NCBI GenBank assembly: GCA_019119045.1
Contig: DWXS01000066.1
Span: 1-46,242 of the forward strand
Reading direction: 5' to 3'
DNA from: Candidatus Mailhella merdavium
Lineage (GTDB): Bacteria; Desulfobacterota; Desulfovibrionia; Desulfovibrionales; Desulfovibrionaceae
Length of the DNA: 46,242 nt
This document shows positions 16,110 to 46,242 of this stretch, one piece after another; within the stretch, counting starts at the first letter, position 1, and each line of letters begins with the position of its first letter. The translations under genes and the position numbers were made by a program. A model generated the notes under the pieces. It saw only the letters and a program-made list of their open reading frames with translations, was not told the origin of the DNA and did not search any database.

Positions 16110-16111
16110 CC

Positions 16112-19212: not shown

Positions 19213-19215
19213 CGC

Positions 19216-23583: not shown

Positions 23584-23590
23584 GGTGCGT

Positions 23591-27148: not shown

Positions 27149-30100
27149 ATGGCCAGACGGCGCAAGCAGACCAGTGATTCCCGTCAGTTGTCGCTGTTCG
27201 ACATCATGGTCAGCCATATCGAACAGATCAGGGAAGAAAACATTCAGGATGACATAAGGGAAGAAGCCGGAACACGGATACTCCGGGAGCCGACGCACGA
27301 ACAGCCCCCGTCCGCTACGCCTCCGGTCAGCCCCGCCTCACACGAAGAACTTCCGAAAGAACCGGAACATCCCGGCAAACGGAAGCCGCTGCTTCCGCCC
27401 GATGACAGCATCCCCCCGAAAAGGCTCGGCGTGAACGGACGCGGTTTCTCTGTTTATGAAACGTCGGACGGGGGACGCATGTACAGTCCTTCCCTGGACA
27501 TCGTGCGCTTCATCGACGGCGACAGGGACACACCGGAAGAGCTGTTCCGGAAAGGAAACGAAGACTACCTGACCGTGCAGGAAGTCGCGGCCTTCAGACA
27601 ACAACATTCCTCAACTCAGGAGGTTTCCCATGCTGGACAGACAGACAAACCCGCTGGACATCGCCAGAACCGTTCTCAAGCCAGAAACCATTCACGACCT
27701 CAAGGTCAGAGGGTTCACCAATTCAGCCTACTTGATTCTCGACCGCTGGGCACTGAACAGTCCCGACGAACTGAAGCGCCTGGAAGAGGAAGGGAATCTG
27801 GCCTTGCAGATACGACTGGATCAGCAGCAGGCCATAGAGAAGAGGACGCTGTGCAGCGAATCCGCCCGGCAGGCGAGCCTGCGGGGGATGTCGGACTGGG
27901 AGATTTTGGAAAGCTGCGGGGTGGAGATGAACCTGAAAATTACCGGATAAGCCCGGAAGATCAGCTTGGCGTCGGCGGCGCAAAGAAAAAATATGCGGAT
28001 AACCTCGCCGCCATACGTCTGCTGAAGCAGCTCCAGGCCAACGGCGCGAAACTGGCCACCCCGGAAGAAAAAAGCACGCTGGTGCATTTTGTCGGATGGG
28101 GTGGTCTTCCGCAGGTCTTTGACCCCAAAAACGACAAATGGGCGGCGGAATACCGGGAACTTCAAGGCGTACTCTCCCCCGATGAATACGCGGCCGCCCG
28201 GCGCTCCACACAGGACGCTCACTATACCTCGGAAACCGTCATCAGGGGCATCTATCAGGGGCTTTCCAGACTCGGCGTTGAAACGGGAAAGGAACTCCAC
28301 ATTCTCGAACCTTCGGCGGGTATCGGCAATTTTATCGGACTTTGCCCGGAAAGTTTCCAGGCCCGGTTCCTGGCCGTGGAACTGGAACCGACAACAGCGG
28401 CCATTGCCGCATACCTGTACCCCAAAGCCCGCCACATCAATAACGGCTTTCAGAACATCCCCCTCAACACGCCGAGTTTCGACCTTGCAGTGGGCAATCC
28501 TCCTTTCGGGAATCAGTCTCTCTACGACCCCGAATTTCCCGAACTGAAAAAATTTTCCATCCACAACTATTTTCTCGCCAAGTCCATGCGCCTGCTGCGC
28601 GAGGGCGGCATAGCCGCCTTTGTGGTCAGCCGTTACTTCATGGATGCCGTCGATTCCTCCGCCCGCGAACATATCGCGGGATATGCCGACTTCCTGGGCG
28701 CGGTGCGCCTGCCTGAAACCGCTTTCCGGCAAAATGCCCTGACGGATGTCACCACCGACATCGTTTTCTTTCAAAAGCACAACGGCGAAAACAAGCGGAG
28801 TCTGGAGTGGCTCCACACGTCCAGCATGGAAGTGGACGACCTCAAGCACGGCGGCAGGCGCACCGCCGTGGTCAACAGCTACTTCGCTTCCCGCCCGGAA
28901 CAGATCATCGGAAGAATGGCGTATTCCGGGGGCATGTTCGAGGACAGCCTGAACTGTGTGTCCGATGCGTCTCAGACAGACCTCGGCGAAGAAATAGCCA
29001 GGCGTCTGGACGCGCTGCCTGCCGTGCAGTTCAGCCCCTTACCCTCTGCCGAAGTCCGTGAAGCCGAATCCGTCCTCAATCATGACTTCCTGGCTTCCGA
29101 CTACTTCCAGTCCCTGAAAATGGGCGCACTCTGCGTTGAACCTCAAAGCAGAAAAATCGTCTTCAAGACTTCCGGGGAGTTCGGCGACGGAGGTTATGAA
29201 CCCGTCACCGTAAAAAATGAAACCGCCCGACTGCGCCTGGCTTCCATGATTCAGCTCAGGGATACCCTGCGTGAGCTGCTCAATGAGGAAAAAGGCGAAG
29301 GAAGTGAAAGTCGTATGGCGAACCTGCGCCAGCGGCTCAACACGCAATACGACGCCTTTGTCAAAAAATACGGGCACCTCAACTCACAAACCAACCGCAG
29401 CCTCATGCGGGAAGACCCTGAACACGCTCTGCTGGAATCCCTGGAAGCGGACTACGACAAGGGCATTTCGCCGGATGTGGCCCGCAAGACCGGCAGACAG
29501 GCCAGACCCGCTTCCGCCAGAAAAGCTGCCGTATTCCGACAGCGTGTGCTTAAACCGGCGACGCTCGCCCAACAGGCGGAAAGCCCCAAGGATGCCCTTG
29601 TCATAGCGCTTCGGGAAAGCGGCAAGGTGGACTTTGCCCGCATGGAACAGCTTCTCGGACGCTCCACCGATGTCATTCAGCGGGACTTGCAGGAACAGGG
29701 CCTTATTTTTCTCAACCCCGCCACGGAACTCTGGGAAATCAGGGATAAGTATCTCACGGGCAATGTCCGGGCAAAACTGCGTCAGGCACGGGACGCCGCA
29801 AGCTCCGACCCTCGCTTTCTGCCCAATGTGGAAGCGCTTACGGAGGCTCTGCCGCCCGACATAGAAGCCGTGGACATCGGCGTCAAGTTCGGCTCCGCCT
29901 GGCTTCCTCCTTCCGTCATATCGGACTTCATCGAACATCTGCATGGCGGAAAAGGCTCTCAGCAGGTGGATTACCTGCCCACGCTCGGTCGATGGAGCGT
30001 CCGTGTCTATCTGTACGATGCCGCGCTGAATACCAACGTCTGGGGCATCCCGGAATACCCTGCGGAAAAAATCATTGAAGCCCTTCTGATGAACAAGCCC

Positions 30101-31498: not shown

Positions 31499-32698
31499 AT
31501 GCTGGATGACCACATTATTCAAGGCTTGAAAGCCGCCGACAAACCGAAAAAGTATGCGGACGGAGGTGGGCTGTTTCTGTTCATTCCGGCCAGCGGCAAA
31601 AAACTCTGGCGGCTGGCGTACCGTTTTGAACGAAAGGCCAAGCTCCTTTCCTTCGGCGAGTATCCCCAAGTATCACTCCGCGCCGCACGGCAACGCCGGG
31701 ATGAAGCCAAGGCCCTGCTCAGGGACGGCATTGACCCGGCGGAACACAGGAAGGCCGCGCGGGCATCTGCCTCCAACGTTACGTTCCAATCCGTGGCTAT
31801 GGAATGGTACGAACGGGAAACCCTTCACTGTAAAAACCGCTATCGCGCCTTCATAAGGCAGGGGATGACGGAATATTTCTTTCCTGCCTTCGGCGGCAAG
31901 GCCATGACGGATGTTACCGCCGAGGACATTATGAGCGCCATCGAACCGTTGCGGCAATCCAGGAAATTGCGCGGAGGCCGCAGGCTGACGGATGTGTGCG
32001 GCCAGATATGCCGCTATGCCGTCGCCACCGGCAAGGCCGCACGGGACGCCACGGAAGAACTGCCCGCGTCGTTACGTTCCAGACAGACAGGCCACAGAGC
32101 CGCCGCGCTCGACGCCGGAAAACTCGGCCAGATTATGCTGAATCTTGAGCGGCATGACGGCTATTTCCCTGTACGATGTGCCCTGCGACTGGTTCCCCTG
32201 CTGTTCGTCCGTTCCGGTGAATTGCGCTGTGCCGAATGGAACGAATTTGATTTCTCCCGCAGACTCTGGGTTATCCCCGCGCAACGCATGGCAGCGAAAT
32301 ATGAGCATGTTGTACCTCTCGCGCCGCAGGCAGTCAAAATTCTCAGGGAACTGAAGGAATACTCCGGTCATGGAACACTGCTGTTCCCCGGCGTCCGTTC
32401 TCCTGAACGCCCCATCGACATATCCACCATCACCGTTTCCCTGCGCAGACGCGGATATGACGGCGTAAAACTGTCCTTTGACGGAATCCGCTCCCTTGCC
32501 GCCAAATTGCTGCTCGTCCTTGGGTACGAACAGAACATCATCGACATGCAGTTGGCGCACTCCGGGCGCACACGTTTTGACCCGTGGCAACATCTGCCGG
32601 AAAGAAAAATCATGATGCGGGAATGGGCCAGGTATCTTTTTCTCCTGCGAGACAAGGCGTTGCGGGATACATCCAGTCAGGGAGGTACGTCATGCTGA
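31499..32698 (+). CDS. P4-type tyrosine recombinase with altered active site
   Basis: A 399-residue integrase-like protein. The DUF4102-type N-terminus is present (ADKPKKYADGGGLFLFIPAS, LLSFGEYPQVSLRAARQRRDE), followed by a SAM-like core-binding domain and the catalytic domain with the first Arg in LLFVRSGELRCAEW. The second motif, normally H-x-x-R, reads SFDGIRSLAAKLL: His is Asp but Arg is kept. The nucleophile region, AYNHAQYLPQR in the neighbour, is here RFDPWQHLPER: Tyr is replaced by Phe. It is therefore probably inactive for strand cleavage and may be a DNA-binding partner or regulator of the next recombinase. Its end overlaps the next start by seven bases. Confidence 0.88.
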   Translation: MLDDHIIQGLKAADKPKKYADGGGLFLFIPASGKKLWRLAYRFERKAKLLSFGEYPQVSLRAARQRRDEAKALLRDGIDPAEHRKAARASASNVTFQSVAMEWYERETLHCKNRYRAFIRQGMTEYFFPAFGGKAMTDVTAEDIMSAIEPLRQSRKLRGGRRLTDVCGQICRYAVATGKAARDATEELPASLRSRQTGHRAAALDAGKLGQIMLNLERHDGYFPVRCALRLVPLLFVRSGELRCAEWNEFDFSRRLWVIPAQRMAAKYEHVVPLAPQAVKILRELKEYSGHGTLLFPGVRSPERPIDISTITVSLRRRGYDGVKLSFDGIRSLAAKLLLVLGYEQNIIDMQLAHSGRTRFDPWQHLPERKIMMREWARYLFLLRDKALRDTSSQGGTSC

Positions 32699-33897
32699 CC
32701 GATACGCAAATCAGAAATCTGAAGCCCGCTGAAAAAGCGAAAAAGTATGCGGACGGCGGCGGACTGTACCTCTATGTTGCCAAAACCGGCTCAAAACTCT
32801 GGCGTATGGCGTACCGTTTCAACGACAAGGAAAAGCTGCTCAGTTTCGGGGAATATCCGATTGTCTCCTTAAAAGATGCCCGGACAAAACGGAATGAGGC
32901 GAAAAAGCTGCTTGCCGACGGTATTGATCCGAGCAGGCACAAAAAGGAGATGAAAAACGCCGCCCTCCTCGCGGAAGCCAATACCTTCGAGCATGTTGTC
33001 CGTGAATGGCATGAAACGCAGACAATCCACAATTCCCCAAAAGACAGGAAGAGGAAACTGTCCACGTTCGAGTTCCATCTTTTCCCCGCTTTGAAACGGA
33101 AGCCCATTTCCGAAGTCACGGCGCAAGACCTGCTGTTGATACTCAAGCCGCTTGAAAGAAAGGGAAAGGAGCTTATCGCCCACAGAATCATCCAGTATTG
33201 CGGCATGGTTTTCCGCTACGCCGTTGCCACAGGCAGAGTGACGCGCAACATTGCCGCCGATCTTCGCGGAGCCATACGTCCGCATCAGGGCAGGCACAGG
33301 GCCACCATCGTTTCCGCTGAAAAAATCGGCGTGCTTCTGAACAGGCTGGACAACTATCACGGACACTTTCAGGTCAGGTGCGCACTGCGCCTTTTTCCCC
33401 TGCTCTTTGTCCGTTCCGCCGAACTTGTCCGCGCCGAATGGAGCGAGTTCAATCTGGAAACGCGGGAATGGCACATACCGGCCGAACGCATGAAGATGCG
33501 AAAGCCGCACATCGTTCCGCTGTCATCACAAGCCGTTGCCATTCTCAAGGAGCTTCATGCCGTCACCGGGGATGGAACATATCTTTTTCCCTCAAGGAAC
33601 AGTGTGAGGAAGCCTATCCACTACTCCACGCCCTTGCAGGCGTTACGCGCTATGGGGTACGGCAAGGAGGAAATGTGCATTCATGGCTTTCGGTCTATGG
33701 CCTCAACCCTGCTCAATGAACAGGGCTTTGACCCTGACTGGATAGAACGCCAACTGGCCCACAAGGAAAAGGACACTTCCCGTATCGCCTACAACCATGC
33801 CCAATATCTTCCCCAGCGACACCGCATGATGCAGGCATGGTCTGACTATCTGGACTGCTTGCGCGAAGAGACACAGAAGGACAGTGAAATGCAGTAG
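32692..33897 (+). CDS. int: P4-type tyrosine recombinase (integrase), intact active site
   Basis: A 401-residue integrase. DUF4102 N-terminus (LTDTQIRNLKPAEKAKKYAD, LLSFGEYPIVSLKDARTKRN), core-binding domain at about 100-190, and catalytic domain with Arg in PLLFVRSAELVRAEW, H-G-F-R in MCIHGFRSMASTLLNEQG, His in ERQLAHKEKD and the nucleophile Tyr in RIAYNHAQYLPQR. All expected catalytic positions are present. GGAGGT stands before the ATG, which lies within the end of the first recombinase gene; the reading frame is open further upstream, but this start is supported by the ribosome site. It likely carries out integration and excision of the nested island. Confidence 0.93.
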   Translation: MLTDTQIRNLKPAEKAKKYADGGGLYLYVAKTGSKLWRMAYRFNDKEKLLSFGEYPIVSLKDARTKRNEAKKLLADGIDPSRHKKEMKNAALLAEANTFEHVVREWHETQTIHNSPKDRKRKLSTFEFHLFPALKRKPISEVTAQDLLLILKPLERKGKELIAHRIIQYCGMVFRYAVATGRVTRNIAADLRGAIRPHQGRHRATIVSAEKIGVLLNRLDNYHGHFQVRCALRLFPLLFVRSAELVRAEWSEFNLETREWHIPAERMKMRKPHIVPLSSQAVAILKELHAVTGDGTYLFPSRNSVRKPIHYSTPLQALRAMGYGKEEMCIHGFRSMASTLLNEQGFDPDWIERQLAHKEKDTSRIAYNHAQYLPQRHRMMQAWSDYLDCLREETQKDSEMQ

Positions 33898-34378: not shown

Positions 34379-34435
34379 ACCTCGTTTCTTCCCCGGCTCT
34401 TCGTCCGTCACACCCGCACGGGTGCCGGAAGCGGT

Positions 34436-35063: not shown

Positions 35064-35096
35064 TGAACCCCGCAAAGCCCAAAGGCAGGGAATGCG

Positions 35097-35447
35097 GTGA
35101 AGCGCGTCAAGCCTGTTCGCACCACCGCCATCATCGTGCGCGTGTTCCCGGAGGAGCGCGACATCCTCCGCTTCAATGCGGGGCTGCACGGCATGAGCAT
35201 GTCGGAGTACATCCGCCAGACCTGCCTTGGCATCCGCCTGCGGAAAACGCCGGAAGAGAAAAGGCGACTGCGGGAACTTGCCCGCATTGGAACGAACATC
35301 AATCAGCTTGCGAGATGGGCCAACACCTACAAGCGAGCGGCGGAAGCCGTGGAGGTATTGACGGCGTTGGCGGGCATCGAGCGGCGTATTGCCGGGTTCG
35401 CATCATGCGCTTCAGCGGAAAGTGAACCGGAGGCCGAGTCATGCTGA
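35097..35447 (+). CDS. mobC: MobC-type relaxosome accessory protein
   Basis: A 116-residue protein starting with GTG. The N-terminal ribbon-helix-helix-like part (TTAIIVRVFPEERDILRFNA, GMSMSEYIRQTCLG) and the conserved MobC centre ELARIGTNINQLARWANTYK (residues about 60-80) are present. MobC binds oriT next to the nick and loads the relaxase or helps strand opening. It overlaps the relaxase start by seven bases, so the two are coupled. Confidence 0.9.
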   Translation: MKRVKPVRTTAIIVRVFPEERDILRFNAGLHGMSMSEYIRQTCLGIRLRKTPEEKRRLRELARIGTNINQLARWANTYKRAAEAVEVLTALAGIERRIAGFASCASAESEPEAESC

Positions 35448-36655
35448 TGAAGGTCTTTCCGCACGGCACTGGAGAAGGCGACAAGCCCAGCCGCTATCTT
35501 GTACGCCCGGATTATCCGGGAAGAGACACAGCCCCGCCCCAGGTGTTGCGCGGCGACCCTGCCATGACCCGCGCGCTTATCGACAGCATAGAGCGGCGAT
35601 GGAAATTCACTTCCGGCGCTCTGTCGTGGCACCCGGAGGAAAAGATCAGCGAGGCACAGGAAGAGGAAGTCATGGACGCCTTTGAACGCGTGGCCTTCGC
35701 CGGTCTGGAAGCGGATCAGCGCAATATCCTCTGGGTGAGGCATACCCATGCCGGGCATCACGAGCTGCATTTCCTCATCCCGCGCCTGGAACTTTCCAGC
35801 GGCAAGGATTTCAACGCCTGCCCACCCGGCTGGCAAAAGGATTTTGACGTGTTCCGCGACCTATTCAACTGGCGCGAAGGCTGGGCGCGGCCGGACGATC
35901 CGGAGCGAACGCGGGATGAACTTCCGAAAAAGGCCGACCTGTTCAAGGCGCGAATGGCGAGATGGGGCAAGGAAATCAGGGAAAGCGACCGCGACCGGGC
36001 CAAAGAGGTTATCCATGCTTTCCTCAAGGAAAAAGTGACGCAGGGGCTTGTCCGGAACCGGGAAGATGTTCTGAACGCACTGAAGGAACAGGGGCTGAAC
36101 ATCAACCGCGAAGGCAGGGACTACATCAGCGTCATTGCCCCGGACAGCGGCATGAAGATGCGCTTCAGGGGAGGCTTTTACGCCAGAGGCTGGACGCCCA
36201 AAGTCGCTCAGGATGAAGAATCCGAGGAAAAGAAAAAGGAAACGGCGCGGAGCATGGTCGCTCGTCTGCAACCGGCTTTTGAGCGCGTCATTGAAAAACG
36301 CGCCGCCTGCAATATCAAACGCTATCCGGCAAAATGGAAACAGCTCCCCGACGAGGAAGCCCTCCTTTTGCCCCAGATTCAGGAGGATACCATTCATGAC
36401 CGAAACCGAACGGATGCTGATGCGGAGTTTGAAACGGATGGAGGAGAACTGCAACGCCCGGCTGACGGCCTTCAGCACGAGGCTGGACAGCCAGGAAGAC
36501 AAGCAGATGCTGATTCAAGCGGAACTGCGTACCTTGAAGCGATTGTTCACCGATGTCAGCGAAGTGTACAGCAGCTTGCAGACCTTGTTGGCGACCTTGA
36601 AAAACGGCGCATAGAGCGGGAACGGCAGAACCAACCGCGCAGGCGGATGCGATAG
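35441..36655 (+). CDS. MobP-type relaxase (mobilization protein)
   Basis: A 404-residue DNA strand transferase that nicks oriT and pilots the strand. The metal-binding histidine motif is HTHAGHHELHF at 101-111, flanked by strands (NILWVR before, LIPRLEL after), typical of the MobA/relaxase family. Candidate nucleophile tyrosines are Tyr19 and Tyr25 (SRYLVRPDYPG). A helical extension with an SLOG-like or accessory repeat (VIHAFLKEKVTQGLVRNRED, NALKEQGLNINREGRDYISV) follows. The last 100 residues are Gln/Asp/Arg-rich and share DNA with a nested gene. GGAGG lies before the start. No type IV channel genes accompany it in the island, so it would use the ICE's Dot/Icm-type channel. Confidence 0.85.
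   Translation: MLMKVFPHGTGEGDKPSRYLVRPDYPGRDTAPPQVLRGDPAMTRALIDSIERRWKFTSGALSWHPEEKISEAQEEEVMDAFERVAFAGLEADQRNILWVRHTHAGHHELHFLIPRLELSSGKDFNACPPGWQKDFDVFRDLFNWREGWARPDDPERTRDELPKKADLFKARMARWGKEIRESDRDRAKEVIHAFLKEKVTQGLVRNREDVLNALKEQGLNINREGRDYISVIAPDSGMKMRFRGGFYARGWTPKVAQDEESEEKKKETARSMVARLQPAFERVIEKRAACNIKRYPAKWKQLPDEEALLLPQIQEDTIHDRNRTDADAEFETDGGELQRPADGLQHEAGQPGRQADADSSGTAYLEAIVHRCQRSVQQLADLVGDLEKRRIERERQNQPRRRMR
36396..36614 (+). CDS. Small helical protein nested in the relaxase gene (MbeB/MbeD-like arrangement)
   Basis: A 72-residue frame within the 3' end of the relaxase gene, with AGGAGG nine bases before the ATG. The product is a continuous amphipathic helix: MTETERMLMRSLKRMEENCN, RLTAFSTRLDSQEDKQMLIQ, AELRTLKRLFTDVSEVYSSL. 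In the same region the relaxase frame gives a low-complexity tail. ColE1-type mob regions also carry small coiled-coil genes (mbeB, mbeD) inside the relaxase gene; the arrangement is alike but I cannot claim sequence homology. Confidence 0.7.
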   Translation: MTETERMLMRSLKRMEENCNARLTAFSTRLDSQEDKQMLIQAELRTLKRLFTDVSEVYSSLQTLLATLKNGA

Positions 36656-36670
36656 GCGGGAATGGCACAT

Positions 36671-37042
36671 ATGGGAAAATTCAAGCGTATTCCGGTGAAA
36701 GACATCAATGCCATGCGGAAAATCCTCGATGATTTGCCGGACAAAAATCTCGGCAAGACGCGGGAGGAAGCTGCCGAACTGCTCAACGCCAATATCCTGA
36801 AAGCGATTGAGAAGGGATACACGGTGAAGGAACTGGCGGCGATCATGGCCGGGGGCAATGTGGTCATTCCCGCGCCCGTCATCCGGGCAAAGGTGCTTCC
36901 CGCGAAGGCGGCTCCGCGAAAACGCGAGCCGAAGCCCCGGCCCGAACAGACAAAAACAGCGGCGCTTCCTCCCAGGGAGCGCAAACCTGAACAGGATACT
37001 CCGGCCTACTACACGCCGGACATACCCGATACGGAGCTTTGA
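36671..37042 (+). CDS. Small basic protein of the mob operon, unknown function
   Basis: A 123-residue protein. Residues 1-65 are helical (INAMRKILDDLPDKNLGKTR, EEAAELLNANILKAIEKGYT, VKELAAIMAGGNV), resembling a small DNA- or protein-binding domain. The second half is a Pro/Arg/Lys-rich flexible tail. An ATG at 36662 is in frame, but GCGGGA touches it and stands nine bases before 36671, which is preferred. Its stop codon overlaps the region just before the ParA-like gene, so the mob genes form one operon. The repeated KELAA...AG pattern recurs in mob accessory proteins, but no name is assigned. Confidence 0.65.
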   Translation: MGKFKRIPVKDINAMRKILDDLPDKNLGKTREEAAELLNANILKAIEKGYTVKELAAIMAGGNVVIPAPVIRAKVLPAKAAPRKREPKPRPEQTKTAALPPRERKPEQDTPAYYTPDIPDTEL

Positions 37043-37044
37043 TC

Positions 37045-37749
37045 ATGGACATCCAGACCAGCGTTTTTTATGTCGGCGGCAGCAAGGGCGGCGTCGGCAA
37101 GAGTCTTTTTTCCTTCGCCCTCGTGGATTATCTCCTCGACAGGAACACAAACATCCTGCTTGTGGATACCGATACCGACAACCCGGACGTGTTCAAGGCG
37201 CATAAAGACCTTGCCCTGCCGAACCTGCTCTGCCGTCTGAACAGTCTGGACGACGCCGACGGCTGGGCGGATCTGCTGGACACTGTGCAGAACTACCCGG
37301 AACATGCCGTGGTCATCAACGCCGCCGCCCGCACTAAGACCAGCACGGCCAGCTACGGCGACATCATGAAGGAAGCGTTGCGGGAGATGCGGCGGGAACT
37401 GGTTGTTTTCTGGATAATCAACCGGCACCGCGATTCCATAGAGCTTCTGCATTCCTTTCAGGAAGTATTCACGGATGTCCCCCTCCATGTCTGTCGGAAC
37501 CTGTATTTCGGCGAAGCGCGGCGTTTTGATCTGTATAACACTTCCAAGGCGCGGGAAGCCGTTGAGAAGAACGGCATGACTCTGGACTTTCCGGCGGTCG
37601 GCAACCGCGTGGCCGACTGGCTGTATTCCAGACGCATGTCCATCCGTGCAGCCCATCCTGAAATGCCCTTCGGCACACGGGCGGAATTGCAGCGTTGGCG
37701 GACACTCTGCGCAAAAATGTTTGAATCCGTCATGGGAGAAGCGTCATGA
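37045..37749 (+). CDS. ParA/MinD-like P-loop ATPase of the mob region
   Basis: A 234-residue ATPase. The deviant Walker A motif GGSKGGVGKSLFSFALVDYL lies at about 11-30 (signature Lys in SKGG), and Walker A' DTDTDNPDVFKA at about 47-58. The usual Walker B Asp cluster is weak (HAVVINAAARTKTSTASYG). Later parts (RMSIRAAHPEMPFGTRAE) have no clear partner-binding feature. No parB-like gene follows. ParA-like proteins are known in mob operons of broad-host-range mobilizable plasmids, so roles in mobilization or in maintenance of the excised island are both possible. The next gene starts four bases inside its end (ATGA). Confidence 0.82.
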   Translation: MDIQTSVFYVGGSKGGVGKSLFSFALVDYLLDRNTNILLVDTDTDNPDVFKAHKDLALPNLLCRLNSLDDADGWADLLDTVQNYPEHAVVINAAARTKTSTASYGDIMKEALREMRRELVVFWIINRHRDSIELLHSFQEVFTDVPLHVCRNLYFGEARRFDLYNTSKAREAVEKNGMTLDFPAVGNRVADWLYSRRMSIRAAHPEMPFGTRAELQRWRTLCAKMFESVMGEAS

Positions 37750-38348: not shown

Positions 38349-38353
38349 AAAAA

Positions 38354-39301
38354 TTAATCGTCTTTTGAGAATACATAATCATGATAGCTACAAAGACCAC
38401 CTAGCTCTTGCTCGTCAGGGCCAAGATCAGCACCGCACACATTGCAATTTTTATACGCAAGCTCTGCTCCGCAAGCAAAACATATTCCTTCTGATATCAA
38501 AAATGTTTCTTTTCCACATTCATGACAGTTAAACAAAATTGTATCTTCACCATCTTTGGCTTGATAGTGGGTTAAACCATATTTTTCGATCGCTGCATGT
38601 TCTACAATATCTTGATAATAATTAGTATTTCCACAAATAGTACATGTAAATTCTAAATCTTCATAATTATCAACATTATTAGGTATTATTAACTCAGACA
38701 TACATTTGGAACACCGTAGTTCATACATAATTAATTCAATAAACGGGATATTAATAATTAAAATTTTCTTTTTTTGGTTACAATCATTCAATAAACGTTG
38801 ATATTCTTTATCTTCTTCGACAAAAACTTCCCAAGTTTTCCAGCCAAGCAGTTCTCTTGGAGGAATTTCCAAATGTTTGGATATAAACTTATTAAGTACC
38901 ATAAATGATTTAGAAATAACTTCTCTAACTTGTATATCTCCTATAGTGCTATAATAATGTTCTATTTCATTTCTTAAATTGATTATAATATCAGCATTTT
39001 TCCAGTCAACATCTATTGATAGCGATTTGAACCTATTTTTAATTTCCTGTACATCAACAGTCTTGGAACCTGTGCCAATAAAATGTACTTTCCCATCGCT
39101 AATTTTAGGTTTAATATTCTTTTTTATAAGAACTTCATCGGAATCATCAGGAGAAAGATCTCGCAATTTTTCCTTAAATAGCAGAAGCATACCAGATGTA
39201 ATATTTCTAATTGACGACAGAAGCCTTCTCTCATCTTTGGATTGGTAATCTTCAATACCAATTTGGATTGAAGATACAGCATTTTTTAGAAGTGCATTCA
39301 T
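38354..39301 (-). CDS. HEPN-motif and zinc-ribbon protein, last gene of the cargo operon
   Basis: A 315-residue protein, visibly more AT-rich than its neighbours. The N-terminal half is helical and holds an R-x4-H motif at 110-115 ([15 protein letters not shown]), the signature of HEPN domains, which are often ribonucleases. The C-terminal half is a string of Cys-x2-Cys knuckles: CSKC, CTIC, CHEC, CFAC, CNVC (about 198-300) plus CSYH, enough for three zinc ribbons that could bind nucleic acid. Its start codon overlaps the stop of the DUF499-type gene (TAATG) with GGAGGAG upstream, so it is translated with it. I know no characterised homologue. Confidence 0.82.
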
Positions 39302-42300
39302 TACTCCTCCTCAAACCCGTAGTCGCTGAAATTCAGTGTCCGGCAGTTCTCCGAGACATCGCGGATCGTCTTCTCGGAAGCGCCGTCCTGCAAGTTGGCT
39401 TGGATTTCGATTGTCACCTGCACGTCCGCGCCGATCAACTTGGTGAGGTGCTGGATCACCTCGTCGGCAATACGTCCTGCATCACGGCCTACGCGGAGCG
39501 CATCGATATTCACGGATCCGTGGAAGCGGCGGAGCTCTTTCGGCTTCGGCGCAGGGGGCACAGGTGGCGGTGTTGCTCCATGTGTAAAGTCTGTGCTGCC
39601 TGAACCATGCGAGGGAGAGACATCTTCATTGGCCTCACTCCCACCGCCTGAAGCTGCTGCTTCGGCTTTTTTCCCAGCTTCCTCAGCGTCTTTGCGGTGC
39701 TGCTCGGCGGCTACCTCCGGCTTGACTACCAGCGCCCCGCCCTCGGCCTGTACGGACGTATTCAGACCGTCCACAAGGCCCTGATAGCGCCCTATCTCGT
39801 TCTTGGCTTGTGCGTAAGCGAAGGTCGCTTTCTGCCAATCGGGTTGGAGGACGCCGTCGCGGATGGCCCCAAGCAGCACATTGGAATCGCGGAGCCTAGG
39901 CAGGTACAAATAGGTTGCAAAGTCCTCCATAAGCTGTTTCACCGGCACGTCGTCGCCACGCCAGAGGGGAACGCGATCCAGTTCCATGCGCAGACGCACT
40001 CCGCCCATTTGGGTCAGCAGAAGTTCTTCGGTCTTCAGCTTCTTGCAGGCGCGAACGGACAAAGCCTCGCTCCCCTGCAAGCGGATTTCCTGCCATTCTA
40101 CCGCGCCTTTAGTGTCGGGCTGCTCCGGCACAAGTAACCATTGCCACGATTCCGGTATACGGGCCTGAACGGTTTTATCGGCGTTTTTGCATTTGGTGTC
40201 GGCCTGCCGTTTTTGGAAGGGGTCGAGGTTGAGTTGCTCGCTTTCCTCCCAGACAGATTTCCAGGCCAGATATTGTCGCACGGCGTTTTTCAGTTCCGCC
40301 AAACGTGCGGCATCCGCCGCCAGAAAAACGAGAGAGTTCTTGTAGGCGCGAGGGCTGTTGCCCCTGTTGTCCAGAATGGCCTGAGCCTCCTTGCGGGCGG
40401 CGCTTTCCTCCTGCCCTTTGGAGTGCGGATGTTCCGGGCCGATAATGACCAGCCGGGCGTCATGTTCATCGGAAATATCGCTGCTGCCAAGGCAGGCGTG
40501 GACGCGACTGAAGTCCCCGCGTGTGCGGGCCTCCTCGCGCAAGCGGCGAGCTATTTCATCCTGAATGACGTGAGCTTGAAGCTGATTGGCCCGGTCTTCA
40601 GCCAAGCGGGCCACAGTGGGCTGGGTGGAGAACCAATAACGGCTGCCGTCCACATACAGGTAGGTCGCACGATCCGTCAGGCGACGCAAGGCATCGCCGA
40701 AAGTTGCCACGGTTTCTCCCGGCTGGACGCAGCCGAGTTTGATTTGCCGTTCGTCGATGCCACGATTGGCGGCGCGTTGGGTGGGCGCGGAGCCGATATA
40801 GATAGTGCGGGCCACGCGACGGCAGGCGGAATAGCGGGCCAAGTTGGGGGCATCGCGCTCCAGCTTGAGAGGCAGGGAGTTTTCGCCGTCCACATCCTTG
40901 GCGATGACCGGCGTCCACTGGTCGTCTAGGTAACGGGTCAGCTCGAACTGCACGGTGGGATCGTCAATGGGCACAGTGGCGGGCATGATGAGCAGATTCC
41001 CGTCGTTGCGTTCCCACAGGCAATGGATGACCGCCGCCATAAGACGCAACACGCCGCGCGTGCGCTGGAATTTGTCCAGAGTAGACCAGTCGTTGTACAA
41101 GCGGTCGAAAAATTCCGGGTGGATGGGGTAGGCTTGGCTGATGCGCCGTTCGTAGTCGGCCTCGCGGCATTCGGAGGGGAACTCGTTGTGTTGCGCCCCA
41201 TACATGCTCACATAGGCGCGGGCCACAGCGTCCCGCGCCGCAAAGGCTTGAGGGGCGGTCATGGGTTCAAAGAGCCTGCGGCGCACGATTTCAAAGCCTT
41301 CGTCCGGGCTGGCAGGTCTCCAGCTTGATTCCACGCGGCCAATGGCGTTTTTGAGCCGGGCCAGAGCCTGCTGGCCGAAGTCCCCGCCAATTTCGTTGTC
41401 CGAGGCAGGGATGCTGACGATGAGCAGAGTATTCTTGGCCGCTTTGGCCGATTCGCTGAGGGCCTGGGCGAAGGTGAATTGCGTGTCGAAGGTGCCCGCC
41501 GGGAGTTGGCTGCCTTCGTGCAGTTGCCGGGCGTAGGCCACCCATTCATCGATGAGGATCAGGCAGGGCGAGAAGCGGTTGAAGAGTTCCTTCATCGTAT
41601 CGCCTGGATTGGTGGCCTTTTCGTCGTCGGCGCGGATCATCCCGTATCCGTCTTTGCCGCCAAGCTGCCAGGCGATTTCGCCCCAAATGGTGCGCACGAT
41701 GGTTCCGTCCTCCTTGACGGACGGATTGCCCGGCGAAACTTTGGTGCCTACGACCACGGCTCGGCGCACGTTGGGCGCGATGGAAGTCCCCGCTTGCTGG
41801 ACGAGTTCGTCCACGCCGGGAAGCTCCGAAACCGGTGTACCGGAAAAAAGGTGGTACAGGGCCAACATGCTGTGGGTTTTGCCGCCGCCGAAGTTGGTTT
41901 GCAGTTCGACAACAGGATCTCCCCCTTGGCCGCCAAGACGCTGCACGGCATTGACGAGCAGCTTTTGCAGGCCCTCGGTGATGAAGGTGCGGCGGAAGAA
42001 CTCCGTGGGGTTCTGGTATTCGGACGCTGCCTCGCGTAGATAGACCTGCCACAAATCCGCCGCGAACTCGGCCTGCTGGTATTTGCCACCGGCCACGTCG
42101 CGGTGCGGTGTGACGACTTCCCGCCACGGCTTGAGCCCAATCATGGGAGTGCCTTCAATAGGCGCCACGGCCTGTTTACGCAGTTCGCCGCGCCGTTGTT
42201 CATCAAAGCGCACCCGCAACAACGCCATTTTCTGCTCTTCCAGTTCTTTGGCTTCTGGCGCGGAAACGGCGGTGAGCAAGCGCCCTATGCTGTCCAGGGC

Positions 42301-42639
42301 ACGGTAGGCGTCGTCGCTGCTAAAGGCAGTCTGGTGCGCCCAGCGGTTGCGCACTTCGCGCAGTTCGCTGACGATGGCCCGCTCCGTATGTCCCAAGGTG
42401 TTGCGAAAGACGCCGCTCCAGGTCTCCCACATAATCAAAAGCAGGTTTTGCGTGTCCCAATTAATCTCGCCCCCGGTCGCGGATTTGACCGCCCCGCCGT
42501 CTTTGCGCAGAATGGCGGATACCGTTTGTTCCCATGTATCTTTGAAAGCGGCGCGGAGTTCGCGCTCCACAAAGGGACGCAGCCCCTTGTTCAGGGTATC
42601 AAGGGCCTCGCCGACGCGGGCGTGATTGGTTTTGGACAT
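39301..42639 (-). CDS. DUF499-type AAA+ ATPase with N-terminal Swt1-like HEPN domain
   Basis: A 1112-residue protein. Residues about 1-125 look like a Swt1-type HEPN domain: [20 protein letters not shown] ... [20 protein letters not shown] ... [20 protein letters not shown], with R97-x4-H102. A P-loop domain follows with Walker [11 protein letters not shown] at 249-258 and Walker [13 protein letters not shown] at 360-371, then [12 protein letters not shown] (sensor-like). The C-terminal quarter has an Ala/Glu-rich linker and a final alpha/beta domain. COG1483 (DUF499) proteins regularly stand beside DUF1156 methyltransferases in defence islands, and BREX type 3 uses a related pair. It follows the methyltransferase gene after 18 bases, with GAGGT upstream. 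Confidence 0.88.
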
Positions 42640-42657
42640 GTGGGTACCTCGTATGTG

Positions 42658-45477
42658 CTATTCCAACAGGCCCTGTTCGCGCTTAGGTTGTTCTTGGGCC
42701 AACTTGAGCAGTTCCGGCCAAGCCATCACCAGGGCGTTGTAGGCTTGGGCTTCGGCAGACCAGCCGTTGCTCTCGGAAATTTTATGCAGGCGGTAGGCCA
42801 GTTCGCGGGCCGTCTCGCCAACGGAACCGGGCATTTTGCGCAGAAGCCGCGCGGCCCCGGATTCGCCTTGGTCTGCCAAAAGGGCATGAATCAAATGCTG
42901 GGTGGCTTCCCAGACCGTAAGACGTTTGTCCGTGGCCGGGTTCCAATCTCCCTGGAGTTCCTCTCGGCGCAACAAGCGGACTTTACCGCCGCCGGAAGCC
43001 ACAATACCTGCCTCTACCAAGCCGTTTATTGATGTGACTTTAGCTTTTGAAAAAGTTTCAGCCTCGCCAAAATCACCCTCTTCAAAGCCATGTAATTTGA
43101 ACCACGGCACGGCCCAACGAGTATCCGCGTCGTAATCTTCTCCCGGTTCATCCAACACATCCCCAAGAATCTGATTAATCAAGCCCAAGGCTGTACGCAC
43201 GGTCATGGGCTTGCCGCTGGATTCCACTACCTTGGAGTAGCGGGAAAACACGGCCATGCCGGGGCCGATGGCCGCTTGGGCCAAGTCCACCGGGGCGATG
43301 TTGCCTTGTTGCAAAGCCACAAGGGCGGCCGGCAGTTCCTTTTTCAGAGCGGTGAGGAAGTCACGGCGGGTGCATGGTTCGGCCTCATCAGGGCGGGCGC
43401 GGCAGGCCAACACGATGTAGGATGCAAGGGCATTGGTGCCCATAGACACCATGCGCCACTTTTGCGAAGCGCGAACTGGCCAGGTGGCGGTAATCTGGAA
43501 TCCGGAACCAAGCAGGGCTTCCAACAAAGTTTCCCAGCCGGTGGTCAGATCCACGCCGCCGGTCTTTTCGTCAGTATCCTCGGCTTCTTCATATGTGCTT
43601 TCGTCGGATTGCTTGAAGGCGTAATAAACGGTGAGGGGAAAACGCGCGTCCATTTTGCCGCGCAGAGTAGTAAAAGCTATGCGGAAGCCAGATTCAAAAT
43701 GCTCCTTGGCCTGTTTTTTATTTCCAGAAAAACGTTCATCAGCTATTGCGGTCAATTCTTGTGCTTTTGGGACAACAATGGTATTAAAAAGGTCTGGGTA
43801 GAGTTCGCCGATGGTATGGCGCAACCAGACATAAAAAAAATCGGACAGCGCGGCATAACAGATGTTATCATAATATGGCGGATCAGTGCTGACGAGAATG
43901 TCATGCACGTTATTCCAAGTACCTGCGGCGTCAATTTGGCAGGCGTCACCTGACTGGATAGATGCTCTCCCTATCACTTCAATACAGTCAGAAACATATT
44001 CCATACAAGTTTGCCATGCGCCAACGGAGTTTCCCAAGATATTTGCTTCCGCAAAATCCCAGACCATAGGGATTGCCTGGCGTCCAAACAGATTCATTAC
44101 CTTTTGATTGCTGGGTGACCATCTACATAGACTATTGTTAAAATCAGCACATCGATCCAAAATCAAAGCTAAAAACGTCGTCACCGTGGCGGCATAAGAG
44201 GTTGCATTGTCGTCAGACAAGCCAGCAGCTTTGGCGTCCGTGCCAATAATTTCATGGACGGAACCGATCAGATCGCTGAATGTCGTCAGAGCCGTGAGTT
44301 GGCGGGAGGAGAAAATATCTTTCCATTGTGTAAAACCATATGGTACACATGTCCCCCCACTTAACTTTGCGGGAATAGGCCCAGTTGGTTCCCAAATCGT
44401 TACAGGGGATTCAACATTTTTTTGTTGTCCTAAAAAAGCGGATAGATATGATCGTCCATGATGTGTTTCAACTACAATAGCTATAAGTTGATAGCCTATT
44501 TTATTATGCTTACCTTCATTTTTAATATATGACTCAGAAATGACTTGTTCACTAAGCAAACAGAAAAACTTTCCACGGGTTAATTTAGTACCTTTACCCA
44601 CTGCTTTCTTATCCGCAGGCTCGCCGGTCTTTACATCGAAACGCCATGTATTGTTTTGACGGTCCACAACTGGCTCCAGCCAAGCCATTTTCCCCTTATT
44701 AGAGGAAAGCCAGTAGGTGCTGATAAGCGGCACATGCGCCCCATGCCTGGCGGGGTCGGGGCTGGCGACAGTCCGCGCCCATATCCAGGCGATGACATTG
44801 GCCTCGCTGTCGCCCTGTTCTCTAGGCAGTGGCACTTGGGAGTACAGGTTGCCAATTTTCTCAAAGGCCTGCTTGCGGATGACATCGCCATAGTAGCGCA
44901 CGTCTTCTGCCAGACCCCATGCGCCGGAACGGCTGATCTGGCTTTTTATCATGTCGCCGCGCATGTTGGGATTGATGGGCTTTTGCCCCAGCCAACGCGG
45001 CACCAGCTCCAGATTGCATTTGTTCAGGAGCACCGCCACCGGGTTGAGGTCGGCGGCATGGGCCACAAAGCCCAGACGCGCTGCTTCCAGCGGGATGGAG
45101 CCGCCGCCGGAGAAGGGATCGAGCATGTCCGGGAGTTTGCCGCCCGTATGAGCCAGCATCTCCGCACGCGCCCTGGCGTAGACTTCCGGCTTGTCGTGCA
45201 ACTTTTTCTGCATGAGGTCGCGCACAATACCGAACAGCCGCTCGCGCTCGGCGGCTTGTGCTTCCTCGGTCGGAAATTTCTCAGGATGGGACGAGGGATC
45301 ATCCACCACAGAAGAGAATAGAACAGCCCGTGCCGAAGGCAAAGGCAAACGCGCCCACCACTGATGGATGCCTTTGGGGTGAGCGCCAATGCCGGGCATT
45401 TTGTCATAGGCCGATGCGTCGTTGATTTCCGGCAACGGCAAGGCGACTTCAATCAGCTTTTTGGGTTGGACGGTCAT
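42658..45477 (-). CDS. DUF1156-type adenine-specific DNA methyltransferase
   Basis: A 939-residue protein with the DUF1156 opening (KLIEVALPLPEINDASAYDK then HPKGIHQWWARLPL) at 7-46. The SAM-binding motif DPFSGGGSIPLEAARLG lies at about 118-134 and the catalytic DPPYYDN at about 529-535, so it should methylate N6 of adenine in DNA; the long insert between them may hold target recognition. The end (residues about 780-939) is helical. The same family provides the methylase of BREX type 3 (PglXI). Modification alone would be harmless, so partners in the operon presumably act on unmodified DNA. Starts 15 bases after the TOPRIM-like gene. Confidence 0.92.
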   Translation of the reverse strand: MTVQPKKLIEVALPLPEINDASAYDKMPGIGAHPKGIHQWWARLPLPSARAVLFSSVVDDPSSHPEKFPTEEAQAAERERLFGIVRDLMQKKLHDKPEVYARARAEMLAHTGGKLPDMLDPFSGGGSIPLEAARLGFVAHAADLNPVAVLLNKCNLELVPRWLGQKPINPNMRGDMIKSQISRSGAWGLAEDVRYYGDVIRKQAFEKIGNLYSQVPLPREQGDSEANVIAWIWARTVASPDPARHGAHVPLISTYWLSSNKGKMAWLEPVVDRQNNTWRFDVKTGEPADKKAVGKGTKLTRGKFFCLLSEQVISESYIKNEGKHNKIGYQLIAIVVETHHGRSYLSAFLGQQKNVESPVTIWEPTGPIPAKLSGGTCVPYGFTQWKDIFSSRQLTALTTFSDLIGSVHEIIGTDAKAAGLSDDNATSYAATVTTFLALILDRCADFNNSLCRWSPSNQKVMNLFGRQAIPMVWDFAEANILGNSVGAWQTCMEYVSDCIEVIGRASIQSGDACQIDAAGTWNNVHDILVSTDPPYYDNICYAALSDFFYVWLRHTIGELYPDLFNTIVVPKAQELTAIADERFSGNKKQAKEHFESGFRIAFTTLRGKMDARFPLTVYYAFKQSDESTYEEAEDTDEKTGGVDLTTGWETLLEALLGSGFQITATWPVRASQKWRMVSMGTNALASYIVLACRARPDEAEPCTRRDFLTALKKELPAALVALQQGNIAPVDLAQAAIGPGMAVFSRYSKVVESSGKPMTVRTALGLINQILGDVLDEPGEDYDADTRWAVPWFKLHGFEEGDFGEAETFSKAKVTSINGLVEAGIVASGGGKVRLLRREELQGDWNPATDKRLTVWEATQHLIHALLADQGESGAARLLRKMPGSVGETARELAYRLHKISESNGWSAEAQAYNALVMAWPELLKLAQEQPKREQGLLE

Positions 45478-45489
45478 ATATTCTCCATC

Positions 45490-46134
45490 TTAGGCCAGGA
45501 GGCGTTCGATCCAGTTCACGAAAGCGAGGGCGTTTGGGTGGTTCAGGTCAAGGTATTGCAAATTTTTATTTCTGTTCATGTGTAAACCTGGCTTATGCTG
45601 CCATGCAAGCCAAGTATGCACCTGAGCCTTTAAAATATCCGATTTGTTAGCATGGCGAAATCGCCTTTTACAGTGAGGAATTTTCTTTACAACACCTTTC
45701 GACCGAGGCCATAAATCGTCAGATGTGCGTATCAAATTAACAAAAAAATTTTCAAGTGCGCCAGGGGATTGATTGTTCGGCATAAACCAAAAACCTATTC
45801 TTCTATCTTCATCAATATCGATAATTGTGCCCTCCAAAGCAGGCATAGGAGGATAGGAAATGTCGCACTTTTTCAGTATACGGATAATTTTTCCCCATGA
45901 AGACATAATATCTTTATCTGTATCAATAATAATACCAATATGTTTATAGCCAGTAGAAGTTATTTCCTGTTCCAAATCGCTAATAACTTTGCTGACCGAT
46001 CCTTTGACTTTAATCGGTTCCTCACTTTTGGGGAAATGAAAATCGAAAACACTTTTTCCCATGTGAGATCGGAGAAGGCCAATGACAAGATGCTTATCGT
46101 CATCTCCTTCAAGGAGAAGTTTGTTGTCGCTCAT
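45490..46134 (-). CDS. TOPRIM-like protein (DUF3226/OLD-nuclease-type)
   Basis: A 214-residue protein with the pattern of single-domain TOPRIM proteins: Glu in LLLEGDDDKHLV (residues 5-16), a second strand with acidic IGIIIDTDKDIMSSW (about 67-81, D-x-D), and later GALENFFVNLI (about 127-137). TOPRIM proteins of this kind often pair with an AAA ATPase (OLD-like) gene and act as nucleases or as their regulators. Its start overlaps the stop of the upstream unfinished gene (ATGA), and its stop is 12 bases before the methyltransferase start, so it is part of the same operon. Confidence 0.78.
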   Translation of the reverse strand: MSDNKLLLEGDDDKHLVIGLLRSHMGKSVFDFHFPKSEEPIKVKGSVSKVISDLEQEITSTGYKHIGIIIDTDKDIMSSWGKIIRILKKCDISYPPMPALEGTIIDIDEDRRIGFWFMPNNQSPGALENFFVNLIRTSDDLWPRSKGVVKKIPHCKRRFRHANKSDILKAQVHTWLAWQHKPGLHMNRNKNLQYLDLNHPNALAFVNWIERLLA

Positions 46135-46242
46135 CGGATTTCAATCCTCTCGTCAACATTCATCTTCAGGCGCACTTCGTCATAAATTTCAGTGTGAAAT
46201 CCAGCTTTGCGTTTTTCTAACCGAACAGCGATACCTTCCATG
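46131..46242 (-). CDS. C-terminal end of an upstream gene of the cargo operon (partial)
   Basis: The last 36 residues of a frame that enters from outside the window: VRLEKRKAGFHTEIYDEVRL and MNVDERIEIR, then a stop that overlaps the TOPRIM gene start. An in-frame ATG at 46241 would also give a tiny complete frame, but no ribosome site can be judged. DUF3226-type genes are usually preceded by an AAA-family ATPase gene, and the ending is compatible with one. That identity is inference; nothing in 36 residues proves it. Confidence 0.5.
   Translation of the reverse strand, partial: MEGIAVRLEKRKAGFHTEIYDEVRLKMNVDERIEIR

What the first reader, a model, noticed from the sequence alone, without database searches (positions are those of the whole stretch)
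38354..46242. Candidate undescribed defence operon: TOPRIM protein, DUF1156 methyltransferase, HEPN-DUF499 ATPase and HEPN/zinc-ribbon protein
Five genes on one strand are coupled by overlaps of one to four bases or gaps of 12-18 bases. A DNA adenine methyltransferase (DPPY motif) and a large P-loop ATPase occur with two proteins carrying R-x4-H HEPN motifs and one TOPRIM-like protein. DUF499 and DUF1156 families are known neighbours in defence islands, and BREX type 3 uses a DUF1156 methylase, but no PglZ, BrxA/B, PLD nuclease or helicase is visible here. An arrangement with two HEPN units suggests RNA-level abortive defence triggered by unmodified DNA. It is cargo of a mobilizable island.
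Basis: partly seen in the sequence, partly recalled or inferred. Interest (0 to 1): 0.88.

Follow-up and report, generated by a model that had tools for sequence, protein, structure and literature searches.

The report
Hma defence operon carrying guest modules
The gene cluster is a known type of bacterial anti-phage operon (Hma) whose missing helicase sits on another piece of the same genome; it carries extra defence genes inside and behind it and rides on a 20-kb mobile island, so it is a well-resolved example of something already described rather than a new system.

Summary
The genes are real and correctly placed, but the system is not undescribed. PADLOC models name the methyltransferase HmaB (1008 bits) and the HEPN-DUF499 ATPase HmaC (1140 bits). 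The "missing" helicase, HmaA (1733 bits), lies on contig C78 of the same genome, followed by the front 276 codons of the ATPase whose last 36 codons open the window's operon. A 17-bp direct repeat where a conjugative-element gene is split between the contigs, and sibling genomes with that site empty, also join them. Order: HmaA-ATPase-DUF3226-HmaB-HmaC-HEPN/zinc-ribbon, cargo of a ~20-kb mobilizable island. This is Hma, alias Type-1 BREX-related, with PDC-M38 embedded between A and B and PDC-S64 behind C. Embedding in Hma is already in the literature ("Hma-embedded candidates"). Added here: ORFs of at least 120 aa lie between A and B in 28 of 51 and between B and C in 19 of 69 sampled pairs, many from unrelated defence families; PDC-M38 recurs in this HmaC lineage; PDC-S64 is mostly unlinked to Hma. 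Best mechanism: methylation-guided restriction by A/B/C, with guests as back-up abortive effectors, possibly guards. No activity was measured.

The parts
46131..46242 (-). Last 36 codons of the OLD-type ATPase (PDC-M38A); front 276 codons are on contig C78:7522-8351 (+)
   Evidence: the intact relative in L002 (356 aa) matches residues 2-284 on C78 and 322-356 here; no other match at E<=1 in the genome
45490..46134 (-). DUF3226 protein (PDC-M38B), TOPRIM-type motifs E9, D71, D73, E128
   Evidence: Pfam PF11536 4.5e-49; PDC-M38B 137.7 bits; E9, D71, E128 invariant in 19 aligned sequences; D73 invariant in the 7 embedded ones
42658..45477 (-). HmaB, DUF1156 amino-methyltransferase, DPPY motif at residue 532, variable region at residues ~300-420
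   Evidence: HmaB 1008 bits; motifs; identity profile
39301..42639 (-). HmaC, Swt1-like HEPN fused to DUF499 AAA+ ATPase
   Evidence: (HmaC 1140 bits)
38354..39301 (-). PDC-S64: N-terminal HEPN (R110-x4-H115) plus cysteine-pair zinc ribbons
31214..31230 (.). Left copy of the 17-bp direct repeat that bounds the island (right copy C78:3423-3439)
27149..31230 (+). Front part of the SNF2/methylase-like gene of the host conjugative element, split by the island; back part at C78:842-3433 (-)
31499..32698 (+). Tyrosine integrase 1 of the island
32584..33897 (+). Tyrosine integrase 2 of the island
35441..36655 (+). Relaxase (MobA/MbeA type)
   Evidence: Pfam Relaxase 27.5 bits, cut-off 24.6; NCBIfam MbeA 130 bits, below its cut-off of 500
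37039..37749 (+). ParA-like ATPase of the island backbone
   Evidence: CbiA 36.1 bits
37746..38348 (+). Protein with hydrophobic stretches (read by eye), last gene of the island backbone; the backbone alignment with G442 ends at 38212

Best explanation
It is an Hma system (Type-1 BREX-related, 'BR') with HEPN-fused HmaC, carrying an embedded two-gene guest (OLD-type ATPase + DUF3226 TOPRIM-type nuclease, PDC-M38) between HmaA and HmaB and a HEPN/zinc-ribbon gene (PDC-S64) overlapping the end of HmaC. Shown: gene content, order (with one unassembled stretch), coupling, kept motifs, island boundaries, recurrence of PDC-M38 in this HmaC lineage. Inferred: HmaB methylates host DNA at a motif set by its variable region; HmaC (AAA+) assembles or loads the complex; HmaA (SNF2 motor with a C-terminal PD-(D/E)XK nuclease) cuts unmodified foreign DNA; the HEPN on HmaC is a last-resort RNase. 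Most speculative: PDC-M38 works like other OLD-ATPase/nuclease pairs (PARIS, AbiL), an ATPase sensor releasing a nuclease when the phage escapes or disables the core, so the operon has a restriction layer and an abortive layer. PDC-S64 is a further HEPN RNase with its own zinc ribbons, and need not depend on Hma.
For: Core: HmaA 1733 bits on C78, HmaB 1008 and HmaC 1140 bits; HmaA has SNF2, Helicase_C and NOV_C domains, DEAH and D...EVK. Contig join, three ways: one ATPase gene split over the two ends; one conjugative-element gene split at a 17-bp repeat; left and right flanks lie side by side in 6 of 7 compared loci, in G453 and G444 at 98-99% identity. Contiguous HmaA-ATPase-DUF3226-HmaB-HmaC in relative L020, and with one extra gene in L005, L009, L010. 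Embedded PDC-M38 ATPases form one clade against three others (100/100). PDC-M38 is a recurrent pair: ATPase beside DUF3226 in 11 of 14 non-window loci. Literature: Hma (PMC8565338, passages), BR systems incl. TOPRIM/OLD-ABC neighbours (PMC12839542, section 29, first part of section 35, passages), HEPN-DUF499 R-M (PMC3710099, passages).
Against: No activity was measured. The contigs do not overlap; about 37 codons of the ATPase are unseen, so an intact ATPase is not proven. The window's DUF3226 is only 42-46% identical to the other six embedded ones, which are 68-84% among themselves, so it may be a replaced or degenerating copy; trees do not decide (AU p 0.53 and 0.24). No match of DUF3226 to AriB models and no convincing match to a solved structure; the AlphaFold model was poor (pLDDT 61.7), so TOPRIM rests on motifs and on recalled family knowledge. 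In the phylum sample no listed DUF3226 place shares a contig with a listed HmaB place apart from the window (the second list is cut, and contigs are short), so PDC-M38 does not need Hma.
Confidence: 0.8

Rival explanations
1. A new, helicase-free defence operon in which HmaB/HmaC-like proteins act with TOPRIM and HEPN nucleases.
For: No helicase lies in the window; relatives show the three core genes can be separated by guests.
Against: A full-length HmaA lies on C78 directly before the front of the split ATPase gene; empty-site and repeat evidence place C78 next to the window's end.
Confidence: 0.04
2. Hma plus passengers: PDC-M38 and PDC-S64 are independent defence genes that merely share the transcript and the island, with no functional link to the core. 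(This rivals only the guest step of the best explanation.)
For: PDC-M38 also exists away from Hma; PDC-S64 lies away from Hma in 8 of 9 plasmid contexts opened and in 19 of 19 viral-contig loci; guests of many unrelated kinds use the same slots; the sibling island in G442 carries other cargo.
Against: The embedded PDC-M38 ATPases are one clade whose pairs L002+L003 and L005+L010 match a 9-row HmaC tree, with 3 changes of PDC-M38 over 51 scored HmaC rows; in the 70-row tree, however, L010 sits among rows without PDC-M38. Guests sit inside the operon with spacing like the core's: HmaA to next gene within 30 bases in 17 of 29 guest and 19 of 23 guest-free junctions.
Confidence: 0.45
3. BREX type 3 or DISARM fragment.
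For: DUF1156 and DUF499 proteins occur in or near such systems; HmaB and HmaC give weaker matches to DUF1156/DUF499 models of other systems.
Against: No PglZ, BrxA/B or PLD hit in the operon proteins (HmaA by Pfam; the ATPase piece itself was not scanned, its L002 relative was); Hma models score far above the others.
Confidence: 0.02
4. A decaying island: the divergent DUF3226 and the contig break mark a degraded defence cargo.
For: DUF3226 and ATPase are far less conserved than the core in the window; an unseen stretch in the ATPase.
Against: The complete reading frames are open with catalytic motifs kept.
Confidence: 0.1

Closest known systems
Hma system (Payne et al. 2021, PMC8565338; PADLOC HmaA/B/C)
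   Same: All three core proteins at 1733, 1008 and 1140 bits, in the order A, B, C
   Different: Guests between A and B and after C; a passage of the paper calls HmaB an m5C methyltransferase, but the motif here is DPPY, as expected of an amino-methyltransferase (the motif rule is recalled)
Type-1 BREX-related (BR) system (Rakesh and Krishnan 2026, PMC12839542)
   Same: SNF2 helicase with C-terminal nuclease-type domain, DUF1156 MTase, HEPN-fused DUF499; TOPRIM/OLD-ABC neighbours are described there
   Different: Its main text does not name DUF3226 (0 occurrences)
Hma-embedded candidates and PDCs ('guilt by embedding', Payne et al. 2024 bioRxiv, seen only as cited in PMC12988326; the preprint itself was not read)
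   Same: Guests embedded in Hma; PDC-M38 and PDC-S64 are PADLOC names
   Different: M38 and S64 together on one Hma operon; HEC-01/02/08 occupy slots in other operons
PARIS (AriA/AriB), AbiL and other OLD-ATPase plus nuclease pairs
   Same: Overlapping pair of OLD-type ATPase and small nuclease-like protein; the L002 ATPase also matches AbiLi (195 bits) and AriA (80 bits), below PDC-M38A (285 bits)
   Different: DUF3226 gives no AriB match; trigger unknown
HEPN-DUF499 R-M operons of Anantharaman et al. 2013 (PMC3710099)
   Same: Swt1-type HEPN fused to DUF499 AAA+, with SNF2 helicase fused to DUF3883
   Different: Guests not discussed in the passages seen

Membership tests
Hma (PADLOC) | HmaA helicase | tested here: met
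   C78:3989-7507, 1733 bits over positions 1-1171 of 1176
Hma (PADLOC) | HmaB methyltransferase | tested here: met
   1008 bits
Hma (PADLOC) | HmaC ATPase | tested here: met
   1140 bits
Hma (PADLOC) | The three genes in one locus | tested here: met
   Indirect: split ATPase gene, 17-bp repeat, empty site, contiguous in L020; about 111 bases not assembled
Hma (PADLOC) | Anti-phage activity | not testable with these tools
   No experiment
Type-1 BR system | DUF499 ATPase, in many taxa with N-terminal HEPN | tested here: met
   PF18731 128.1 bits, PF04465 102.5 bits
Type-1 BR system | SNF2 helicase with C-terminal PD-(D/E)XK nuclease | tested here: met
   SNF2 66.8, Helicase_C 82.3, NOV_C 71.4 bits; D...EVK at 1078-1096; nuclease fold not modelled
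Type-1 BR system | N-terminal TUDOR in the helicase; DUF499 in the Type-1 clade of the published tree | not tested
   Published tree not rebuilt
BREX type 3 | PglZ, BrxA, BrxB | tested here: not met
   None among the operon proteins (HmaA by Pfam)
DISARM | DrmA/DrmB with DrmC | tested here: not met
   No such hit among the operon proteins (HmaA by Pfam)
PDC-M38 | M38A ATPase directly followed by M38B (DUF3226) | tested here: met
   M38B 137.7 bits; M38A by way of the L002 relative, 284.6 bits, which matches the two window-genome pieces; the window's own pieces were not scanned
PDC-S64 | PADLOC model match | tested here: met
   189.7 bits over residues 2-292
PARIS | AriB (TOPRIM, DUF4435) | tested here: not met
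   DUF3226 protein gives PDC-M38B hits only at E<=1
TOPRIM fold | E and DxD catalytic motifs; fold | tested here: inconclusive
   Motifs kept; model pLDDT 61.7, no useful structural match
HEPN superfamily (PDC-S64) | R-x4-6-H and HEPN fold | tested here: met

The most novel reading that the evidence does not exclude
Hma works as a docking operon: its A|B and B|C junctions, and the position behind C, host exchangeable back-up modules that guard the core, and OLD-ATPase + nuclease pairs from different families (PDC-M38 with DUF3226, HEC-01 with DUF4276, HEC-02 with a PD-(D/E)XK-like partner, Septu PtuAB) are recruited repeatedly because they sense loss or inhibition of Hma. In the window's lineage PDC-M38 has been co-inherited with HmaC long enough to count as a fourth and fifth component, and it diverges fast, as expected of an arms-race sensor.
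Probability: 0.25. Interest if true: 0.65.

Novelty: new member of a known kind. Interest (0 to 1): 0.4.

Why it matters
It turns a candidate 'undescribed' system into a placed Hma locus, and shows three layers of nesting with boundaries: guest modules in an Hma operon, the operon as cargo of a ~20-kb mobilizable island, the island inside a conjugative element. Sibling genomes supply the empty site and the same island with other cargo, so gain and loss of the cargo can be followed in one genus. If the guests do guard the core, Hma is a natural assay for what phages do to restriction-like systems.

Tried and rejected
Undescribed helicase-free system: rejected after HmaA was found on C78.

TOPRIM fold of DUF3226 by structure: AlphaFold with 7 sequences gave pLDDT 61.7 and Foldseek no match at E<=0.001; not used. 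Sequence searches of solved structures gave nothing for DUF3226 alone and for HmaC, and only weak, unconvincing hits for the DUF3226 profile and the zinc-ribbon protein.

Replacement of the window's PDC-M38 cassette by recombination: suggested by identities, but the AU tests did not reject co-inheritance with L002/L003 (p 0.53 for DUF3226, 0.24 for the ATPase), so not claimed.

HEC-02's small partner as a second TOPRIM: rejected on reading the alignment, which shows an IEVKDFR stretch of PD-(D/E)XK type instead; this reading is by eye.

Slot specificity of PDC-M38 for A|B: rejected, since G532 (L195) has it between HmaB and HmaC (there DUF3226 is a weak PDC-M38B match, 28.5 bits, but 66.5 bits to Pfam DUF3226).

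PDC-S64 as a regular Hma partner: rejected. 2 of 395 phylum genomes have a match, the window and a weak partial one; 0 of 41 genomes of HmaC relatives (where the tool warns that silence does not prove absence; the same model did find the window); beside Hma in 1 of 9 plasmid contexts opened and 0 of 19 viral loci. A link between stand-alone DUF3644/S64 HEPN genes and HmaC without fused HEPN (L097, L141, L142, against the window) rests on 4 loci and is left open. HmaC and the embedded type of DUF3226 were not found in viral contigs by the pattern scans (one more scan with a plasmid DUF3226, also empty). Promoter and terminator scans around 37700-39400 gave no excess over shuffles (4 against 4.6; 2 against 1.6).

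Full report
What was checked. The window is the whole contig C33 of a 3.02-Mb, 91-contig genome. The five reported minus-strand genes are present with the stated spacing. Domain and motif calls are confirmed: DUF3226, DUF1156 with DPPY, Swt1-type HEPN fused to DUF499 with a P-loop, and a HEPN/zinc-ribbon protein.

What it is. PADLOC models give HmaB at 1008 bits and HmaC at 1140 bits, DUF3226 as PDC-M38B at 138 bits and the last gene as PDC-S64 at 190 bits. It is followed on C78 by the first 276 codons of an ATPase that runs off the contig. The window's operon opens with the last 36 codons of the same gene: an intact 356-aa relative (L002) matches C78 with residues 2-284 and the window with 322-356, with no other match at E<=1 in the genome. 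About 37 codons are not assembled and the two contig ends do not overlap.

Why the two contigs belong together. First, the split ATPase. Second, a large SNF2/methylase-like gene of the surrounding conjugative element breaks off in the window at 31230 and continues on C78 from 3433 on the other strand; a 17-bp direct repeat lies at both break points (window 31214-31230, C78 3439-3423). Third, the empty site: left and right flanks lie side by side in 6 of 7 compared loci. In G453 (98.6 and 98.1% identical) they overlap by exactly those 17 bp; in G444 (98.6 and 98.7%) by 14, the right alignment starting three bases late; four more, among them a second copy in the window's own genome, show the uninterrupted site at 74-81% identity. 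Both siblings are of the window's genus. Two tyrosine integrases, a relaxase and a ParA-like gene lie inside the left repeat. The island is about 20.1 kb: 15.0 kb here, about 0.1 kb unseen, 4.9 kb on C78. In the seventh locus, G442 of the same genus, the island backbone (window 30561-38212, 92.7% identity) occupies the same site and the right flank lies 17 kb further on, but in place of the Hma operon there is other cargo, including a type I specificity-subunit-like gene and a Tet(M)/Tet(W)-type ribosomal protection gene.

Relatives. A scan of GTDB genomes with HmaC gave 41 loci, chosen by similarity to the window, not a random sample. L020 has contiguous HmaA-ATPase-DUF3226-HmaB-HmaC; L005, L009 and L010 have the same with one more gene before the ATPase; L002 and L003 have ATPase-DUF3226-HmaB-HmaC with HmaA off the contig; L019 has ATPase fragments. 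In the window's bacterial family, 9 of 288 genomes have a DUF3226 match. Of the 8 whose surroundings I examined, 5 have it inside Hma: the window, three that are the L002, L003 and L020 contigs again (identical), and G532, where it lies between HmaB and HmaC (in G532 HmaC reads as two overlapping frames). G464, with two partial matches, was not examined. Since L002 and L020 carry Desulfovibrio in their record titles, the host is probably one of the Desulfovibrionaceae (inference). In a sample of 395 genomes of the phylum, 13 have a DUF3226 match, and no listed place shares a contig with a listed HmaB place except the window (the list is cut and contigs are often short). An ATPase lies beside DUF3226 in 11 of the 14 non-window loci, in one case as a 92-aa ORF. 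PDC-M38 is thus a pair that also lives outside Hma.

Slots. I added 40 regions, picked from the better-scoring HmaB/HmaC hits, and one plasmid locus. The set includes remote relatives that may be other BR types; the window, L002, L003 and L195 are not in the first count; L148 and L149 carry identical HmaC rows and both count; short ORFs may be spurious. Of the 85 guest ORFs, 35 were scanned, 29 of them against PADLOC and the rest against Pfam alone, with five other proteins from these loci. Matches include a TmtA-like GHKL protein, PDC-S06, AlbA/Schlafen proteins, AbiEii, GmrSD, SoFic, HEC-01, HEC-02, HEC-08, a ClpP-like protease, a TIR protein (PDC-S35), a weak ApeA, DarT with a macro protein (L019), and PDC-S02. 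5 of the 29 gave no PADLOC match (237 aa in L142; L024, L174, L037, L042) and a few only weak ones (L161, L166). Outside the count, IetS lies before HmaB in L017, where HmaA is off the locus, and G532 has a Septu PtuA/PtuB pair in A|B with PDC-M38 in B|C. In two genomes of the window's own genus (L141, L142) the Hma operon has HEC-08 (DUF3644 HEPN) in A|B and an HEC-02 ATPase with a small nuclease-like partner in B|C. So the two classes of guest seen in the window, an OLD-type ATPase with a nuclease and a HEPN protein, occur in siblings with non-orthologous genes in other positions.

Inheritance. In a tree of 70 HmaC proteins the window groups with L002 and L003 (100) inside a clade whose members carry PDC-M38, HEC-01, AlbA, OLD ATPase or IetS guests (quick tree). 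PDC-M38 presence needs 3 changes over 51 scored rows. Embedded ATPases form one clade against three others not seen beside Hma (100/100; only 3.6 kb is held for one of the three), and L002+L003 and L005+L010 pair as in a 9-row HmaC tree; in the 70-row tree L010 lies among rows without PDC-M38, so exchange is not excluded. The window's copy is divergent: DUF3226 42-46% and ATPase 49-53% identical to the six others, against 83-85% for HmaC to L002 and L003, while the six are 68-84% and 56-87% among themselves. Fast evolution or replacement both fit; the AU tests do not reject co-inheritance. HmaB falls to 30-48% identity at residues about 300-420 (to 53% from 240 on in L002) between stretches of 67-93% in the L002 and L003 comparisons. 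This lies between the SAM motif (120) and DPPY (532), as fits the target-recognition insert that the BR paper places after core strand 2, so specificities probably differ.

HEPN on HmaC. 49 of 71 full-length HmaC rows were flagged as HEPN-fused and 44 of the 49 have R-x4-H at residues 60-150; two of the other five (L141, L142) are short and probably lack the domain, the other three start elsewhere.

PDC-S64. It was found in 12 plasmid records and 19 IMG/VR contigs. In 9 plasmid contexts that I opened (H31-H34, H36, H37, H39-H41) Hma is beside it once, on the Methylomonas sp. DH-1 plasmid, in the order HmaA-HmaB-HmaC-S64; H31 had no annotation and was checked with my own protein queries, H37, H40 and H41 by annotation alone. 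H35, an apparent duplicate of H34, H38 and H42 were not opened. None of the 19 viral loci has an Hma gene by my profiles. The model of its first 147 residues aligns best with an unnamed Dyadobacter protein, then with HEPN toxins and Csm6.

Mechanism. For the core I follow the published proposal (PMC12839542, section 29): methylation marks self, HmaC organises scanning, HmaA cuts, the fused HEPN is a last resort. For the guests, two readings are close: passengers that share a transcript, or guards of the core. Shared spacing, recurrence and partial co-inheritance favour a lasting link, and the variety of guests and the copies outside Hma favour passengers. I give the guard reading about 0.25.

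Known or new. HEPN-DUF499 with a SNF2-DUF3883 helicase was described in 2013 (PMC3710099, passages). Hma was named in 2021 (PMC8565338, passages). The BR paper of 2026 treats it as Type-1 BR and lists TOPRIM/OLD-ABC neighbours (PMC12839542: outline, section 29, first part of section 35, part of the reference list, passages). Embedding in Hma is the basis of the HEC name, and PDCs come from the same approach (Payne 2024 preprint, seen only as cited in PMC12988326, passages; PMC10855318, one passage). A paper on Desulfovibrio piger reports Hma and HEC-01 and notes systems embedded in others (PMC12724379, one passage). Searches for 'DUF3226' and for 'PDC-M38', 'PDC-S64' in the held library found no paper, which does not cover preprints or most subscription journals. 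The locus is therefore a new, well resolved member of a known kind.

Noticed in passing
window 31214-38348: Backbone of a ~20-kb mobilizable island with two tandem tyrosine integrases, relaxase and ParA, bounded by a 17-bp direct repeat and inserted in a SNF2/methylase-like gene of a conjugative element (TraG-type, VirB11-type and topoisomerase genes in window 16106-25366).
   Followed up: yes
L207/L208 (G442:C28): Same island backbone at the same site in a sibling genome, with different cargo: an HsdS-like gene and a Tet(M)/Tet(W)-type ribosomal protection gene (1247 bits).
   Followed up: partly
L195 (G532:C13): Hma operon with a Septu PtuAB pair between HmaA and HmaB and PDC-M38 between HmaB and HmaC; HmaC reads as two overlapping frames.
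   Followed up: partly
window 42658-45477: HmaB residues ~300-420 are hypervariable against L002 and L003; L009 and L010 carry a distant HmaB (45-51%) beside closely related HmaA and HmaC, as if the methyltransferase had been exchanged.
   Followed up: partly
L019: DarT and a macro protein sit between HmaA and the PDC-M38 ATPase fragments; HmaB was not found in this locus.
   Followed up: no
L107-L125: PDC-S64 homologues on 19 IMG/VR contigs (25-42% identical in the 18 aligned); this HEPN/zinc-ribbon gene looks like a widespread single-gene cargo of mobile elements.
   Followed up: partly
L104 (Plesiomonas shigelloides plasmid): An ATPase-DUF3226 pair lies a few genes behind phage tail genes, like a prophage cargo locus.
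   Followed up: no
L042, L175, L176, L177: Related operons with HmaC before HmaB and a recurrent 134-203-aa protein between them; possibly another BR type, not tested.
   Followed up: no
L049 (C78) 41-694: A 217-aa transposase-like gene (read by eye) at the far end of C78, a possible reason for the assembly break on that side; not scanned against a library.
   Followed up: no
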